Origin: Thalassotalea psychrophila
GTDB taxonomy: Bacteria; Pseudomonadota; Gammaproteobacteria; Enterobacterales; Alteromonadaceae
DNA length: 64,000 bases
Assembly: GCF_031583595.1 (NCBI RefSeq)
Contig: NZ_CP134145.1
Coordinates: forward strand, 3,782,001 to 3,846,000
Direction: 5' to 3'
Shown here one piece after another: positions 563 to 6,635 of the stretch; the first letter of the stretch is position 1; every line of letters starts with the position of its first letter. The position numbers were made by a program, and so were the translations under genes. Below the pieces are notes generated by a model. That model saw nothing but the letters and a program-made list of their open reading frames with translations. It was not told where the DNA came from and did not search any database.

Positions 563-1561
563 ATGGCCACAATTTATGAAGTGTCGGAATTAGCAGGAGT
601 ATCTCTTGCAACTGTTTCGCGAGTAATGAATAACAATGCGAAAGTAAGCGACAAAACGCGAACTAAAGTATTGCAGGCCATGGATAAATTAGGATATAAA
701 CCAAATTCTATTGCGCAATCCTTAGCGTCTAATCGTACCAATAGTGTCGGTGTATTAGTTTCTGAATTACATGGTGGATTCTTTGGTTTTATCATGGACG
801 GTATTGAAAACGAACTTCGTATAGCCAACAAGCATATTATTATTACCACTGGTCATAGTGATGAAGCGCAAGAAAAAAGCGCTATTGATTTTTTAATTAG
901 CCGAAAGTGTGATGCGCTAATTTTACTAACAGATTCAGTAGATGATGACTATCTCATTAGTATTTCAAAAACTATCCCGACAGTGCTTGTTAACCGTAAA
1001 ATAAATGGTATTGCCAATAATTGTATTAGCTTGAATAACGAGCAAGGTGGTTACTTAGCAACAAAGGCATTAATAGAAAAGGGCCACGAAGACATAGCTT
1101 ACATTGCAGGACCAGACTGGAAAGTTGATTCTCACGATCGTCTTTTAGGCCATAAAAAAGCCCTTACTGAACATAATTTAGCTTATAAAACCGAGCTTTT
1201 CTTTCAGGGTGATTTTAATGAAGACAGCGGTTTTGACGGATTTAACCAATTAAAGACAGCAGCAACAAAATTTACTGCAATAGCTTGCGGAAATGATGAA
1301 ATGGCATCAGGCGCGATGAAAGCGGCAAGAAAACAAGGCTTAGATTTACCCAAAGATCTATCTATAGTCGGTTTTGATAATAATATGTTTGCCAGTTATT
1401 TATATCCAGAGCTAACTACTGTAGATAACTCTGCATATTTTATGGGTAAAATGGCAACTGACATTATTTTAAAAAGTGTTTATAAACAAGATGATATTAC
1501 TATCCAGAATGTATTTGAACCAAAATTAGTGCAACGTAACTCTATCGCTTCAATATCATAA
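563..1561 (+). CDS. LacI-family transcriptional regulator
   Basis: This 332-residue protein has the standard LacI/GalR layout. Residues 2-22 form the helix-turn-helix with the recognition helix SLATVSRVMN. A hinge follows, and a periplasmic-binding-protein-like sugar domain runs from about residue 60 to the end. The length is normal for the family. It faces the sugar operon at 1590-6590 and lies downstream of a sugar symporter. The palindrome at 6620-6635 in front of that operon has the central CG typical of LacI-family operators, so this protein is the obvious candidate repressor. The effector is unknown; a cellobionate- or gluconate-related ligand is an inference from the operon content. 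Confidence 0.93.
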   Translation: MATIYEVSELAGVSLATVSRVMNNNAKVSDKTRTKVLQAMDKLGYKPNSIAQSLASNRTNSVGVLVSELHGGFFGFIMDGIENELRIANKHIIITTGHSDEAQEKSAIDFLISRKCDALILLTDSVDDDYLISISKTIPTVLVNRKINGIANNCISLNNEQGGYLATKALIEKGHEDIAYIAGPDWKVDSHDRLLGHKKALTEHNLAYKTELFFQGDFNEDSGFDGFNQLKTAATKFTAIACGNDEMASGAMKAARKQGLDLPKDLSIVGFDNNMFASYLYPELTTVDNSAYFMGKMATDIILKSVYKQDDITIQNVFEPKLVQRNSIASIS

Positions 1562-1589: not shown

Positions 1590-2354
1590 TTAGTGCAGTT
1601 TAATTTTTCCAAATACACTAGCATCAATATAGCCTAGATTTTTATCGCCATTTTTAGGTTTTATATCATCTGATCCTATAAAATGTTCACGTTCTTTACT
1701 GCCATCATTATCGCAATAAGCCAACATAAAACCGATAACTTTGCCTTTTGTTAATTTCACGGGTGTATGCTTACCTTTTAGAGTGAAACTATCATCATAC
1801 AATTTTATAGCTAACTCCCAGGTGATCACATTTTCAGGACTAGCATTTCTTTGCCAGCCACTTTGCACATGTTCATTAAGTAAAATAAAATTAGTACTAC
1901 CATCTGAGTTTTTAGGCCCGATATCAGCGACTTGGTTATCTAACGCGACATGATAAGCAAAGGCATTAAAACTAAATTGATGTTTACCTCCTGACGCATC
2001 TTCATCAATAAATACTTCTAGGCTGTCGTCATCCCAGTATTTCTCAGTCGGGTTTGCATATTGATCAAACAAAACATCATCTCTAATTTCTGCCATTAAA
2101 TATAAATAATCTTCATCCCAGAGTAATTTGAAACGACCAGAGAAATCGTCACTACTTGGATATTCACCAACAATATGCTTATCAATAAGTGACCATTGTG
2201 CTTTATTCCAAGCTTGCTCTGATGCTTTTCCATCAATAGTAATTGCAGATTCAGCTTCAACCACAGCGGCTATATTTTCATCAGCAAGACATTGTATTGC
2301 AAAGAATAAACAACACAATGACATAGCTTGTTTTAATCGTGGAAGGTGTTTCAT
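1590..2354 (-). CDS. Secreted CBM9-like carbohydrate-binding protein
   Basis: This 254-residue protein starts with a signal peptide (hydrophobic core near residues 10-24, probable cleavage after CLA). It continues as one domain resembling carbohydrate-binding module family 9, seen in the early segment ITIDGKASEQAWNKA, the YLYLMAEIRDD strand and the YWDDDSLEVFID motif. No catalytic domain is attached. Its start codon overlaps the stop of the upstream phosphorylase-kinase gene in an ATGA arrangement at 2351-2354, so the two are translationally coupled. A periplasmic or surface role in capturing the sugar used by this operon is likely but inferred; the ligand is unknown. Confidence 0.8.
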   Translation of the reverse strand: MKHLPRLKQAMSLCCLFFAIQCLADENIAAVVEAESAITIDGKASEQAWNKAQWSLIDKHIVGEYPSSDDFSGRFKLLWDEDYLYLMAEIRDDVLFDQYANPTEKYWDDDSLEVFIDEDASGGKHQFSFNAFAYHVALDNQVADIGPKNSDGSTNFILLNEHVQSGWQRNASPENVITWELAIKLYDDSFTLKGKHTPVKLTKGKVIGFMLAYCDNDGSKEREHFIGSDDIKPKNGDKNLGYIDASVFGKIKLH

Positions 2355-5230
2355 GCGTCGCCCTTTTTAAGGTGAGTAACTATTTGTCCCAAGACACTTG
2401 CTTGCGGTTGGTTGGCATCAATTTGGTAAACATCTAACTCCCCTTTTGGGCGCTGTAATGCGACAAATTGGCTGGCGAGTAAATCAGCTTTGAAAAAGTG
2501 CGAGTTTCTAGCTTTTAATCTTTTTGAAATTTGTTTTTCATCAACGTCTAAAAATACAAAGCGAGTAACAAAACCAAGTTGTCTGAATTTTTCTCGATGC
2601 TCTGCTCGAAGACCAGAGTAAGCTAACACACAACCATTGTCTTTCATGAATTCTTTTTGTAAACAAGCACATATTTTATCAATCCAAGGTCCACGCTGAA
2701 CATCGGTTAAAGGTATCCCCTTAGCCATCATTTCTATCGAATCTTTTGAATGAAAATCGTCTGCCTCTATGTATTTATAGTTATACTGTTGGCTAACTTG
2801 CTTTGCGATAGTTGATTTACCGCAACCACTAACCCCCATTATAATTATCAGCTCGGATTGGGCGGGAATTAATACTTTGACCAGATAATTTTTGCCTGCA
2901 ACAATATTAGTAATACGATTAGATGTTATATAACTACCATTAACCTGAATCGTTTGTTGGCTTACTTGCTTTGACTTCGTAATCTCAACTTCAAAAATCG
3001 AACCATTGAATTTTCTGTTCACAGATAATTTGGGCCAATGCGTAGGTAGTTGTGGCTTAATTAACAAATCACCTTTGTGCCCTACTAGTCCTGCTATACA
3101 TTCAATCACACAACGATAAAACCAAGACACTGTGCCGGTATTAAATAACTGGCTTGAGCGCCCTGCGGTTCTAGGATGTTGATAATAGGCACCACGATAA
3201 TAATTAGGAATAAAAGTTGGCAATTGCCCTCGCTGGATAAAATCATCATCCGGTAGCATCTTCCTCATAACTTCAAATGCTTTATCACCCTCACCAATTT
3301 TAAATAAACTATATGCATAGAAAATTGCCGCATGATTATAGATAGAGCCATTTTCAGCTGTGCCGGAAAATTTCTGGGTAACTCTACCAACATCTTCACG
3401 CATTTTTGTATAACTTGGCGCTAGCATCATAGTGCCAAATGGAGTATCAAGTTGCTGTTTTATTTGCGCAAGTAATTTACCTTTTTGCTCGGTTGATGCC
3501 GCCCCAGAAAGTATTGCCCAACTTTGTGGGTTTAAGAAAATCCTCCCTTCTTTATCATCAGCAACGCCAAAGCTTACGTTATCATCTGTAATACCACGGC
3601 TATACCACTCCCCTCCCCAACAATGTGTATTAACCGCTTGATTAAGCTGTATTGCAAAAGCACGATATTTTGAATTTATTTCAATTTGATAATCATTACA
3701 AATATCTATCCAAGTGTTAATTGCATAGGCACTTGCCAACGTTAACCAAGTTGACACACCTCTACCTTTGTAACCGACCATATTCATAGGGTCACACCAA
3801 TCTCCTTGTGCGATATAACTAAGGCCTCGTTCATCTCGTGCGCCAATTAACCAGTCTAATGCTAATTCAATATGCTGCTTGACTGTTTGCTTATTTGGGT
3901 TATCAGCAAAGCCAACTAATTGATCTAGTAATGCTAGGTCATTTGTTTCATTTAAGTATGCTTGAATGCATATAGGAAGCCATAAACAGTGGTCAGTGTG
4001 AGGCACTTGATTGATGTATTTCAAGCTTGCATCAGGATGAATTAAAATACCATCAGGCATCTCTCCTGTCTGGTATTGCTGACTCAATGCAGTGATGAAC
4101 GCTTGGCGTGCGGTGTTTGGCGCAATATAACTCATGCCAAGGTTATCTTGTAAATAATTACGAGTTTGAGGGTCGGTTGTTAAGCGGTTTACATCACCAA
4201 GATAAAACACTTGTCTGGGCAGCCAATGATTCACAAATTGATCTAAAATATTGTCGCCTGTATCAATTTTTATTGGGCCAGAACTTTGCATTACATAATG
4301 TTGATAATTATTTTTTTCTTGGTCAAAGCATAATGTTTTGCCAAAGTATCTATTTTTAATTTCTGATACTTGCTGATCATTAGATGCAGGACCAAATAAA
4401 AAGCGATAGTTCATTCTCTGCTCAGGCTGAAAACATTGTTGATATTGCATGACCGCAGCAGGCACTTCATATAATGAATTTATTTGCTTTAATGCATAAG
4501 CTTTTATGCCATCTGGGAAAGATACGTCGCTGTTGCCCTCAAACACTTTTTGATTACAACACCACGATGTCGGAACCGTGTCGGCGATAAAAAAGGTTTT
4601 TTCTTTTAAATTATGTCGTGCAAAGTACTCTTCAACTTTTTGATAAGGGCTGATACAAGTAGCAATGATCGCATTTAACTCTGGGAAAAAGTCTGCCGAT
4701 TGATTCATCCACGACATATAGCCAATAGTGAAATAAGGATAAATACTGATATTACGCACTTTATTGTCTAAGTTGGTAACATTTAACTCCCACATTTCAA
4801 TCGCATCAGAATCGCTAAGAGTTACCATTATGGTAACCTCAATATTTAGCGCTTCAATGCGCCATTTAATATCATTTTGGCCAGCTGAAAAACAAAAATA
4901 ATCGAGTGAGGTTTTTGTTGGTTCAAATGGCGCTGAAAACACTTCACCAGTATCATCATCTTTAATATAAAAAAATCGCCCCGGATGATTGGCATAATAC
5001 GCATGCTCTGGTTGCATAAATGTTTTTGCTTCCAGGTTTGGTGCATAAGCGTATTTACTTGGCTCTGGCTGCATAAATTGACCTACTGCATAACCACGAC
5101 AATTAAATTGCACCATCATGTATTTATTCCACAAAAAACCACCTGCCTCAGGCATTTCAGTCGGACTATATAGTTCTACGCGCTGGCCTTTTTTATCCAC
5201 ATAAACTAGCTCATCTTTAGGCTTGTTCAT
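2351..5230 (-). CDS. GH94 phosphorylase (cellobionic acid phosphorylase-like) fused to gluconokinase
   Basis: The protein is 959 residues long from the ATG at 5230, which has a purine-rich RBS; an in-frame ATG 27 bp upstream would add nine residues. Residues 1 to about 790 are a GH94 phosphorylase with the catalytic-acid motif GDWCDPMN (Asp480 of the DWCD motif). Arg616 and Lys620 have the same four-residue spacing as Arg609 and Lys613 of Saccharophagus degradans cellobionic acid phosphorylase, which bind the gluconate carboxylate. Residues from about 794 to the end are a complete GntK-type gluconokinase: P-loop GVSGCGKST (799-807), GDFLH-like EADDFHS, and RLKARNSHFFKADLL. Cellobionate plus phosphate would give glucose-1-phosphate and gluconate, and the kinase would make 6-phosphogluconate. 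The substrate is inferred. The gene overlaps the upstream symporter by 14 bp. Confidence 0.88.
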   Translation of the reverse strand: MNKPKDELVYVDKKGQRVELYSPTEMPEAGGFLWNKYMMVQFNCRGYAVGQFMQPEPSKYAYAPNLEAKTFMQPEHAYYANHPGRFFYIKDDDTGEVFSAPFEPTKTSLDYFCFSAGQNDIKWRIEALNIEVTIMVTLSDSDAIEMWELNVTNLDNKVRNISIYPYFTIGYMSWMNQSADFFPELNAIIATCISPYQKVEEYFARHNLKEKTFFIADTVPTSWCCNQKVFEGNSDVSFPDGIKAYALKQINSLYEVPAAVMQYQQCFQPEQRMNYRFLFGPASNDQQVSEIKNRYFGKTLCFDQEKNNYQHYVMQSSGPIKIDTGDNILDQFVNHWLPRQVFYLGDVNRLTTDPQTRNYLQDNLGMSYIAPNTARQAFITALSQQYQTGEMPDGILIHPDASLKYINQVPHTDHCLWLPICIQAYLNETNDLALLDQLVGFADNPNKQTVKQHIELALDWLIGARDERGLSYIAQGDWCDPMNMVGYKGRGVSTWLTLASAYAINTWIDICNDYQIEINSKYRAFAIQLNQAVNTHCWGGEWYSRGITDDNVSFGVADDKEGRIFLNPQSWAILSGAASTEQKGKLLAQIKQQLDTPFGTMMLAPSYTKMREDVGRVTQKFSGTAENGSIYNHAAIFYAYSLFKIGEGDKAFEVMRKMLPDDDFIQRGQLPTFIPNYYRGAYYQHPRTAGRSSQLFNTGTVSWFYRCVIECIAGLVGHKGDLLIKPQLPTHWPKLSVNRKFNGSIFEVEITKSKQVSQQTIQVNGSYITSNRITNIVAGKNYLVKVLIPAQSELIIIMGVSGCGKSTIAKQVSQQYNYKYIEADDFHSKDSIEMMAKGIPLTDVQRGPWIDKICACLQKEFMKDNGCVLAYSGLRAEHREKFRQLGFVTRFVFLDVDEKQISKRLKARNSHFFKADLLASQFVALQRPKGELDVYQIDANQPQASVLGQIVTHLKKGDA

Positions 5231-6590
5231 TGCTGATAGTCTCTTGTTTTTGATCATTCAGCTGACCTTGGATATCTATAATTTTGTTATCATTTAATGG
5301 ATAGAGCCGGATCACAAATACTGAAATTAATGCAAAAATGGCAGGTAGAAGTGTCATTAACAATACAATGCCGTGTTGTGACTCCAAGCTTTGAGCTTGA
5401 TTAGCTACATAACCTAAACTTGCAAGTAACCAACCCATCATAGCGCCGGCTAACGCTCCTCCTAATTTTTGCGCGAATGCCGCTGCAGAGAAAATCATTG
5501 CCGTTGCTCGCCTGCCAGTTTTCCACTCTGAAAAATCTGCTGTATCAGCATACATAGAAAAGACTAATGGCGACTTAGGCCCTAGACAAAAGCCAATGGC
5601 TATTTGTAATGAAAAGATAAGCCAAAGTTGGTCTTTTTGAACAAAATAAAATAACGCCGACAATACCGTTACAGCGATCATTAAAATGAACAATAATGTT
5701 TTTTTATCAAAGAATTTTGTCAGTATTGGCGTACTCGCCGCCCCAACACCTAAAGACAGCATATAAGCTAAGCTAAAACTGCCAATTAAGTCCTCTCGCT
5801 CAACAAAATACTTAAAATAAAAGGTGCCTGAACTGCCCCGTAAAGTGATGGTCATCATGATAATCAATGCTAAAGAAAACAGTATTAGCCAAGGTTTATT
5901 GTTAAATAAATCTTTAATGTCTTGCAGAACGGGGGCACTCTTCTCGGCTACAGGTTGAATGCGTTCGGTGGTAGAAATAAAGCTAATAAAAAATAGTGCT
6001 GCGGCGACAACCCCATAGGTCAGCATAGTTAATTGCCAACCTAATACTTGATCAGCCCCACCATAATAATTCACCAATTCAGGTGTTAAATAAGCAACTA
6101 AGCTTCCTCCAGAAAAAGCGCCAATAAAACGAAAACTAGTTAATAAGGTACGCTGTTGGCTATCACCAGTAATAACGCCAAGTAATGCTCCATAGGGCAC
6201 ATTAATAAAGGTATATGCCAGCATCATAAATATATAGGTACAGTATGCCCAAGCCAACTTACCACTATCATCAAGATCAGGTACCGTAAAAGTTAATACG
6301 CCGGCAGCAACTATCGGAATAATCCCCCAAAGCAAGTAAGGTCTGAACTTTCCCCAGCGAGTTTTTGTTCTATCAGCAACTGCGCCCATTAGCGGATCAG
6401 AAAAGGCATCAATTAAGCGAGTAACCAGCATCATGGTTCCTACAGCACCTGCAGATAACCCAAATACATCGGTATAAAAAATGAAAAGAAATACGTCAAA
6501 TACGCGCCAATAGAAATTTGAAGCGACATCTCCGCAGGCATAACCCGCACTTTCTTTTATTGAAAATTTATTATTTATTTGTTGTTTCAT
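5217..6590 (-). CDS. GPH-family sugar:cation symporter (MFS)
   Basis: This protein of 457 residues has about twelve hydrophobic segments and GPH/MelB-type motifs: DVASNFYWRVFDVFLF near the N-terminus, LIDAFSDPLMGAVADRTKTRWGKFRPY in the first cytoplasmic loop region, and TADFSEWKTGRRAT in the second half. The ATG at 6590 was chosen because the N-terminus then reads MKQQINNKFSIKES, as in relatives; an ATG nine codons upstream is less likely. It is the first gene of the operon symporter - phosphorylase/kinase - CBM9 protein. Its promoter region carries the LacI-type palindrome at 6620-6635. Import of cellobionate or a related oxidised cello-sugar is inferred from the next gene. Confidence 0.9.
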   Translation of the reverse strand: MKQQINNKFSIKESAGYACGDVASNFYWRVFDVFLFIFYTDVFGLSAGAVGTMMLVTRLIDAFSDPLMGAVADRTKTRWGKFRPYLLWGIIPIVAAGVLTFTVPDLDDSGKLAWAYCTYIFMMLAYTFINVPYGALLGVITGDSQQRTLLTSFRFIGAFSGGSLVAYLTPELVNYYGGADQVLGWQLTMLTYGVVAAALFFISFISTTERIQPVAEKSAPVLQDIKDLFNNKPWLILFSLALIIMMTITLRGSSGTFYFKYFVEREDLIGSFSLAYMLSLGVGAASTPILTKFFDKKTLLFILMIAVTVLSALFYFVQKDQLWLIFSLQIAIGFCLGPKSPLVFSMYADTADFSEWKTGRRATAMIFSAAAFAQKLGGALAGAMMGWLLASLGYVANQAQSLESQHGIVLLMTLLPAIFALISVFVIRLYPLNDNKIIDIQGQLNDQKQETISNEQA

Positions 6591-6619
6591 TGATTGTTCA
6601 CTTATATACCAGTACAAAA

Positions 6620-6635
6620 ATGTAAGCGCTTACAT
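6620..6635. promoter_or_regulatory. LacI-family operator in front of the symporter operon
   Basis: The sequence ATGTAAGCGCTTACAT is a perfect 16-bp palindrome with the central CG pair usual in LacI/GalR operators. It lies 29 bp before the symporter ATG on the minus strand and overlaps a plausible -10 region, so binding would block transcription. The only LacI-type gene in view is at 563-1561. The pairing of regulator and site is inferred. Confidence 0.8.

What the first reader, a model, noticed from the sequence alone, without database searches (positions are those of the whole stretch)
2351..5230. Cellobionic acid phosphorylase-like GH94 enzyme fused to a gluconokinase
The sequence shows a complete GH94 phosphorylase followed in the same frame by a complete GntK-type gluconokinase. 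If the GH94 part acts on cellobionate, its products are glucose-1-phosphate and gluconate, and the fused kinase would at once make 6-phosphogluconate. One polypeptide would thus move both halves of an LPMO-type oxidised disaccharide into central metabolism. Arg616 and Lys620 have the spacing of Arg609 and Lys613, which bind the gluconate carboxylate in Saccharophagus degradans cellobionic acid phosphorylase. I do not know of a described fusion of this kind.
Basis: partly seen in the sequence, partly recalled or inferred. Interest (0 to 1): 0.85.

Follow-up and report, generated by a model that had tools for sequence, protein, structure and literature searches.

The report
Phosphorylase-gluconokinase fusion for oxidised cellobiose
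A bacterium carries one protein that joins two known enzymes, predicted to split oxidised cellobiose with phosphate and then phosphorylate the released gluconate; related bacteria have the same fusion, and another group appears to have made it separately in the opposite order.

Summary
ORF 2351-5257 (minus strand, 968 aa, or 959 from the ATG at 5230) is a complete GH94 phosphorylase followed directly by a complete GntK-type kinase. The GH94 part is cellobionic acid phosphorylase (CBAP)-like: 1095 bits to the solved Saccharophagus enzyme, with Arg/Lys at its Arg609/Lys613 positions, absent from the cellobiose and chitobiose phosphorylases aligned. The kinase passes the TIGR01313 cut-off (141.8 against 113.75 bits) and is the genome's only match to that model. 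The fusion is no artefact: 13 further protein clusters and one more sampled genome carry it. Three clusters have the kinase first; a common origin with the kinase-last fusions is rejected (AU p 0.0001). Among 36 CBAP genomes sampled, gntK directly follows CBAP in 23, lies one gene upstream in 4, is fused in 2. The operon is GPH symporter, CBAP-GntK, CBM9 protein, under a LacI-type operator found six times in the genome, five in this beta-glucoside cluster. No LPMO_10, GH5 or GH9 match was found in the genome, so cellobionate probably comes from elsewhere. Parts and pathway are known; I found no description of the fusion in the open-licence papers searched. Activity and channelling are untested.

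The parts
2858..5257 (-). GH94 cellobionic acid phosphorylase-like region (residues 1-800; start codon at 5257 or, more likely, 5230)
   Evidence: PF06165 and PF17167; 1094.9 bits to 4zle, aligned 23-800; the two closest relatives start at the position of the 5230 ATG
3791..3793 (-). Asp489 of the GDWCDP motif, aligned with Asp472 of 4zle; taken as the catalytic acid
   Evidence: alignment; invariant in A1 and A2; its role is recalled, not from a call
3371..3385 (-). acceptor-site Arg625 and Lys629 (Arg616/Lys620 in the 959-aa numbering) in GRVTQK
   Evidence: 120 of 120, 80 of 80 and 30 of 30 CBAP relatives keep the motif; contact with the carboxylate is recalled
2375..2851 (-). GntK/IdnK-type gluconokinase domain (residues 803-961)
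   Evidence: TIGR01313 141.8 bits, cut-off 113.75; E. coli GntK 1knq 99.5 bits
2813..2836 (-). Walker A P-loop GVSGCGKS of the kinase (residues 808-815)
   Evidence: sequence; conserved in the C-terminal fusions aligned
2606..2623 (-). AYSGLR motif (residues 879-884), in place of the SALK motif of E. coli GntK
   Evidence: the SGL form is shared with 13 of 25 stand-alone kinases compared, all 13 from CBAP gene clusters
5217..6617 (-). GPH-type (MelB-like) sugar:cation symporter, first gene of the operon; ATG likely at 6590 (inference); overlaps the start of the fusion gene
   Evidence: PF13347 323 bits, TIGR00792 397.7 bits; a GPH gene precedes CBAP in 75 of 80 GTDB loci
1590..2354 (-). protein with a signal-peptide-like start and a CBM9-like domain; its ATG overlaps the stop codon of the fusion gene
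   Evidence: PF06452 148.7 bits; overlap read; follows CBAP in 18 of 80 GTDB loci; the signal peptide is judged by eye
6620..6635 (.). perfect palindrome ATGTAAGCGCTTACAT, LacI-family operator-like, upstream of the operon
   Evidence: expected by chance in the window 0.02; 6 sites of TGTAAGCGCTTWCA in the genome, 5 in this cluster
563..1561 (+). LacI/GalR-family regulator, the likely reader of the operator (inference)
   Evidence: PF00356 and PF13377
1..470 (+). C-terminal part of a second GPH symporter whose gene begins upstream of the window, next to a GH1 gene
   Evidence: PF13347 in the window and in the full gene, L032 17142-18470

Best explanation
It is a bifunctional cellobionate-utilisation enzyme. 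The N-terminal GH94 domain splits cellobionate (glucosyl-beta-1,4-gluconate), brought in by the GPH symporter, with phosphate into alpha-glucose 1-phosphate and gluconate. The C-terminal GntK domain then phosphorylates gluconate with ATP to 6-phosphogluconate, which enters the Entner-Doudoroff and pentose-phosphate routes, for which the genome has edd and gnd. The fusion is derived from an operon in which gntK directly follows the CBAP gene. Shown: the architecture, its recurrence, the class-specific acceptor residues, the operon, the shared operator-like site and the absence of a second GntK-type match. Inferred: both activities, the substrate, transport by the GPH symporter, control by the LacI protein, the route of origin. 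No evidence bears on substrate channelling.
For: 1095 bits to SdCBAP over 23-800, the Foldseek top hits of the model being 4zle/4zlf at 57% identity (one search lists 4ZLE-4ZLI as SdCBAP with acceptor D-gluconate); CBAP-type Arg/Lys present here and absent from the other GH94 chains shown; GntK above cut-off; it is the only TIGR01313 match in the genome, and no FGGY match reaches the FGGY gluconokinase cut-off; edd and gnd present; among 36 CBAP genomes gntK directly follows CBAP in 23, lies one GPH gene upstream in 4 and is fused in 2; opposite-order fusions of separate origin; operator-like site shared by TonB-receptor, GH1, GH3 and this transporter gene. Published precedent for the pathway as separate proteins: S. 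cerevisiae with a cellobionate transporter and CBAP consumed cellobionate only when a gluconokinase was added (PMC4537572, passages).
Against: No biochemical data. The genome has no LPMO_10, GH9, GH5 or BBE oxidase match, so an endogenous source of cellobionate is not evident. The kinase carries SGLR..HR where E. coli GntK has SALK..YR, and it evolves faster than the GH94 half (51% against 68% identity to L073). TIGR01313 is a subfamily model; neither gluconokinase equivalog reaches its cut-off (109.8 against 265 and 104.6 against 304 bits). In 7 of 36 CBAP genomes gntK is not near CBAP, and in 26 of 80 GTDB loci no GntK lies in the fetched stretch.
Confidence: 0.87

Rival explanations
1. The GH94 domain mainly acts on another beta-glucosyl acid, for example a glucosyl-glucuronate, and the kinase handles only a minor product.
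For: I recall that SdCBAP was also crystallised with a glucosyl-glucuronic acid (4ZLI; not shown by any search). The organism has no match to LPMO_10 or to the two cellulase families searched.
Against: A GntK is fused, directly downstream or one gene upstream in 29 of 36 CBAP genomes, and the two were fused at least twice in different orders, which points to gluconate as the released product. The acceptor Arg/Lys do not vary in the sequences examined.
Confidence: 0.07
2. The kinase domain is decayed or has another substrate, so the protein is in effect only a phosphorylase.
For: Faster divergence of the kinase half and a changed SALK motif.
Against: P-loop, HFF and other kinase motifs are kept in the 14 C-terminal fusions aligned; dN is below dS in the kinase half in the 8 of 15 pairs where dS could be computed (for example L073 against L074: 0.17 against 1.20; dS is near saturation). 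The genome has no other TIGR01313 match. The changed motif is shared with stand-alone kinases of CBAP clusters.
Confidence: 0.05
3. The fusion is an assembly or frameshift artefact joining two neighbouring genes.
For: The two genes are often neighbours, and in G331 in the same frame with one stop between them, so one base error could mimic a fusion.
Against: 13 other clusters and one other genome have the same in-frame fusion, including Thalassotalea nanhaiensis and T. fonticola on contigs of 4.3 and 4.9 Mb.
Confidence: 0.01

Closest known systems
Saccharophagus degradans cellobionic acid phosphorylase (SdCBAP, Sde_0906, PDB 4ZLE-4ZLI)
   Same: Alignable over nearly the whole GH94 part, catalytic motif, Arg609/Lys613 and Gln347 equivalents
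   Different: SdCBAP is a stand-alone chain of 796 residues in the PDB entry; here a gluconokinase follows directly
GntK/IdnK-type gluconokinase (E. coli GntK, PDB 1KNQ; TIGR01313)
   Same: Full-length domain, P-loop, HFF motif, curated cut-off passed
   Different: Carried as the C-terminal domain of a phosphorylase; SGLR..HR in place of SALK..YR
Neurospora crassa CBT-1 / CAP / gluconokinase cellobionate pathway (PMC4537572, passages read)
   Same: Same reaction sequence: transport, phosphorolysis, gluconate phosphorylation
   Different: Separate fungal proteins
GntK-GH3 fusions of Arthrobacter/Paenarthrobacter (P0158 and relatives)
   Same: A gluconokinase joined to a glycoside-cleaving enzyme family
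   Different: Other catalytic family (GH3), kinase at the N-terminus in P0158, substrate unknown

Membership tests
GH94 | supersandwich plus (alpha/alpha)6 catalytic domains | tested here: met
   PF06165 73 bits, PF17167 212 bits, both above cut-off; Foldseek top hits are GH94 structures
Cellobionic acid phosphorylase class of GH94 | closest solved relative is a CBAP, far above other GH94 classes | tested here: met
   1095 bits to SdCBAP; next chain 184 bits
Cellobionic acid phosphorylase class of GH94 | Arg and Lys at the positions of Arg609/Lys613 (role recalled) | tested here: met
   Arg625/Lys629; absent in the ChBP, cyclic glucan synthase and CBP chains shown
Cellobionic acid phosphorylase class of GH94 | phosphorolysis of cellobionate and not of cellobiose | not testable with these tools
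   needs an enzyme assay
GntK/IdnK-type gluconokinase | curated TIGR01313 cut-off reached over nearly the full model | tested here: met
   141.8 against 113.75 bits, model 1-160 of 164
GntK/IdnK-type gluconokinase | SALK..YR motif as in E. coli GntK | tested here: not met
   SGLR..HR here; the SG form in 15 of 15 C-terminal fusions and 13 of 25 stand-alone kinases compared. That the motif faces the substrate is inference, so this is a variation and not a failed family criterion
GntK/IdnK-type gluconokinase | ATP-dependent phosphorylation of gluconate | not testable with these tools
   needs an enzyme assay

The most novel reading that the evidence does not exclude
CBAP-GntK fusions are single-chain cellobionate-to-6-phosphogluconate enzymes in which the kinase has specialised for the phosphorylase's product (SGL-type kinases tied to CBAP clusters, and in this genome the only GntK-type kinase). 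Gluconate would be passed on locally, and ATP-driven trapping would keep the reversible phosphorolysis running forward.
Probability: 0.2. Interest if true: 0.65.

Novelty: new variant of a known kind. Interest (0 to 1): 0.5.

Why it matters
The fusion ties a phosphorylase of oxidised cellulose fragments to the kinase that consumes its product. Fusion in both orders is genomic evidence that gluconate is the physiological product of this GH94 clade. It marks bacteria that may use oxidised cello-oligosaccharides even when no LPMO_10 gene is found in their genome. It is also a possible single-gene module for cellobionate use in engineered strains, where gluconokinase was the limiting step in yeast (PMC4537572, passages). 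Of the kinase-last clusters with a source name, four (P0002, P0003, P0005, P0011) are called only 'gluconokinase' and one (P0016) 'AAA family ATPase', which hides the phosphorylase.

Tried and rejected
A cellobiose phosphorylase reading was rejected on similarity and on the acceptor residues. A chance or artefact fusion was rejected on its recurrence. An endogenous LPMO source was looked for and not found in G000; LPMO_10 occurs in 9 of the 36 CBAP genomes. A PQQ sugar dehydrogenase match (PF07995, 144.8 bits) exists in G000 but is far weaker than the best match in each of the five other genomes searched (382-437 bits), and I draw nothing from it. A single origin of the C-terminal fusions is not rejected (AU p 0.45 for 14 rows; 0.34 for 15 with G375), so I claim only two separate origins, kinase last and kinase first (p 0.0001 for the 14 plus 3 rows as one clade, G375 left out). 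In the quick tree itself the C-terminal fusions stand in three places (3 changes), with long branches. The tree held 75 rows: 15 C-fused, 3 N-fused, 28 stand-alone from the order sample (6 of the 36 genomes gave no locus and are missing) and 29 stand-alone chosen by me from the listed hits. The kinase comparison used a motif filter that missed some kinases (those of loci L033-L036: G105, G379, G311, G213, none near CBAP), so its 25 stand-alone rows are a part. dN/dS is near saturation and only indicative. The structure model (mean pLDDT 79.5) is of low confidence at the acceptor loop 605-636, so it was not used for active-site geometry; the 50 Foldseek rows shown include no gluconokinase. The JBC 2015 CBAP structure paper is not held. 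The claim that no fusion is described rests, all limited to open-licence PMC papers and mostly to listings; I read passages of four papers (PMC4537572, PMC8950772, PMC5309861, PMC8062543). The discovery papers of CBAP themselves could not be read.
Full report
Observation. The ORF at 2351-5257 on the minus strand encodes 968 residues without a stop. Residues 89-289 and 329-723 match the two GH94 domains; residues 804-961 match the GntK/IdnK gluconokinase model over positions 1-160 of 164 and above its cut-off. The alignment to the solved CBAP runs to residue 800 and the kinase model begins at 804, so there is almost no linker.

Class of the phosphorylase. The best solved relative is 4zle, 1095 bits over residues 23-800; the next chains are at 184 bits and below. 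A review table lists 4ZLE-4ZLI as S. degradans CBAP with D-gluconate as acceptor and as a dimer (PMC8950772, passages). Arg609 and Lys613 of that chain align with Arg625 and Lys629. At the same two places the Vibrio chitobiose phosphorylase has F and V, the cyclic glucan synthases Y and Y, and a Clostridium thermocellum cellobiose phosphorylase E and Y (organism); the remaining GH94 classes were not shown. The Arg/Lys motif was found in 120 of 120 listed homologues, 80 of 80 GTDB loci and 30 of 30 loci of the order sample. Gln347 of SdCBAP, which fills subsite +2 (PMC5309861, passages), aligns with Gln364, which is invariant in both alignments. That Arg609/Lys613 hold the carboxylate is recalled.

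The kinase. E. coli GntK is the best solved relative of the C-terminal part (99.5 bits). It is the only TIGR01313 match in the 4.8-Mb genome, and the two FGGY-kinase matches stay far below the gluconokinase cut-off (162.5 and 61.5 against 648.55 bits). All 15 C-terminal fusions compared carry SG(L/I) where E. coli GntK and the 3 N-terminal fusions carry SAL. Of 25 stand-alone kinases compared, 13 share the SG form, all from genomes in which gntK directly follows CBAP or lies one gene upstream, while 12 keep SAL or SSL, 9 of them also directly after CBAP. The form is thus a mark of some kinase lineages, not of fusion. Its effect is unknown.

Recurrence. Of 2401 homologues, 120 are listed; 15 of these hold a P-loop kinase, 14 at the C-terminus (the window's included) and one, P0107, at the N-terminus. 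A search with the kinase part of P0107 gave 192 hits, 120 listed, three of them GntK-GH94 proteins: P0107 and P0127 (no source name) and P0128, from Roseateles sp. BYS87W. A search with the window's own kinase part gave 12 hits, 6 of them GH94 fusions. In a sample of 394 genomes of the order, 36 have a CBAP relative and 2 of those are fused, G000 and G375. In the GTDB scan 538 relatives were found and 80 kept; 5 of the 80 are fused: a Thalassotalea MAG, Thalassomonas sp. M1454, Psychrosphaera saromensis, Psychrosphaera sp. B3R10 and a gammaproteobacterial MAG. The other 458 were not seen.

Origin. On a tree of 75 GH94 sequences, holding 14 C-terminal and 3 N-terminal fusions together is rejected (AU p 0.0001), while a single origin of the C-terminal ones is not (p 0.45 for 14 rows, 0.34 for 15). 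Among the 36 genomes, gntK follows CBAP directly on the same strand in 23, precedes it with one GPH gene between in 4, is fused in 2, and lies elsewhere in 7. In G331 the two genes are in the same frame, parted by one stop codon and 18 bases. Among the 80 named loci, gntK is within 300 bases downstream in 17, further downstream within 2.5 kb in 6, upstream on the same strand within 2.5 kb in 13 (six Rheinheimera, six Duganella, Pelomonas sp. Root1444; in 12 of the 13 a GPH gene lies between), not found in the fetched stretch in 26, and elsewhere or on the other strand in 13. The order of the fusion would thus mirror gene order: downstream gntK in Colwellia-like bacteria, where the kinase-last fusions are, and upstream gntK in some Burkholderiales, the group of the named kinase-first fusion. 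This last link is inference from few cases; Massilia and others show no such neighbour, and Rheinheimera has gntK upstream without a fusion.

Operon and regulon. A GPH symporter gene stands upstream of CBAP on the same strand in 75 of 80 loci, and a CBM9-domain gene downstream in 18 of 80. In the window the symporter gene overlaps the start of the fusion gene, and the CBM9 gene's ATG overlaps its stop codon. A perfect palindrome, ATGTAAGCGCTTACAT, lies at 6620-6635, upstream of the operon. The pattern TGTAAGCGCTTWCA occurs at 6 places in the genome and its backward control at none; 5 are in a 22-kb stretch: two before a TonB-dependent receptor gene, two between an MFS-GH3 pair and a GH1-GPH-LacI set, and one here; the sixth is just upstream of another GH3 gene. 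The same site, with at most one mismatch, lies within 500 bases upstream of the symporter gene in 18 of 75 named loci, including all 5 fused ones. In G375 a one-mismatch site lies about 140 bases before the start of a gene for an LPMO_10-CBM2 protein. Against a general link: G375's own CBAP operon shows no such site, even with 3 mismatches, in the stretch held (about 90 bases upstream), and the LPMO loci of five other genomes show none.

Source of the substrate. G000 has no LPMO_10, GH9, BBE-type oxidase or GH5 match; other cellulase families were not searched. LPMO_10 occurs in 9 of 36 CBAP genomes. G000 has edd (984 bits) and gnd (575 bits) for the fate of 6-phosphogluconate. The likeliest picture is a scavenger of beta-glucosides and their oxidised forms released by other organisms. 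This is inference.

How it most likely works. Symporter import of cellobionate; phosphorolysis to glucose 1-phosphate and gluconate by the GH94 domain; phosphorylation of gluconate by the fused kinase. Per cellobionate one ATP is used and two phosphorylated products result. The gain over separate enzymes may be fixed stoichiometry, pull on a reversible reaction, or channelling; nothing here tells these apart.

Known or new. The reactions and both families are known, and the pathway as separate proteins has been rebuilt in yeast, where gluconokinase was limiting (PMC4537572, passages). No paper describing a GH94-gluconokinase fusion, or any gluconokinase fusion under the phrases tried, turned up in the listings. 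I file it as a new variant of a known kind.

Noticed in passing
P0158 and many relatives (Arthrobacter, Paenarthrobacter): GntK is fused N-terminally to a GH3 enzyme (P0158: TIGR01313 200 bits plus PF00933). Some GH3 enzymes are phosphorylases (Nag3, PMC8950772, passage), so this could be a second, unrelated solution to the use of gluconate glycosides.
   Followed up: partly
P0121; P0157, P0164, P0203: Other kinase fusions found with the GntK queries: with 6-phosphogluconate dehydrogenase (P0121), a lactate racemase-like domain (P0157), aldose 1-epimerase (P0164) and an FCD regulator (P0203) (domains).
   Followed up: partly
   Followed up: partly
window 1590-2354: A CBM9-domain protein with a signal-like start overlaps the end of the fusion gene and its relatives follow CBAP in 18 of 80 GTDB loci; its role is unknown.
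   Followed up: partly
L032 2581-10665 (upstream of the window): TonB receptor, tryptophan halogenase-like protein, SapC and cupin genes in line, with two operator copies before the receptor gene.
   Followed up: no
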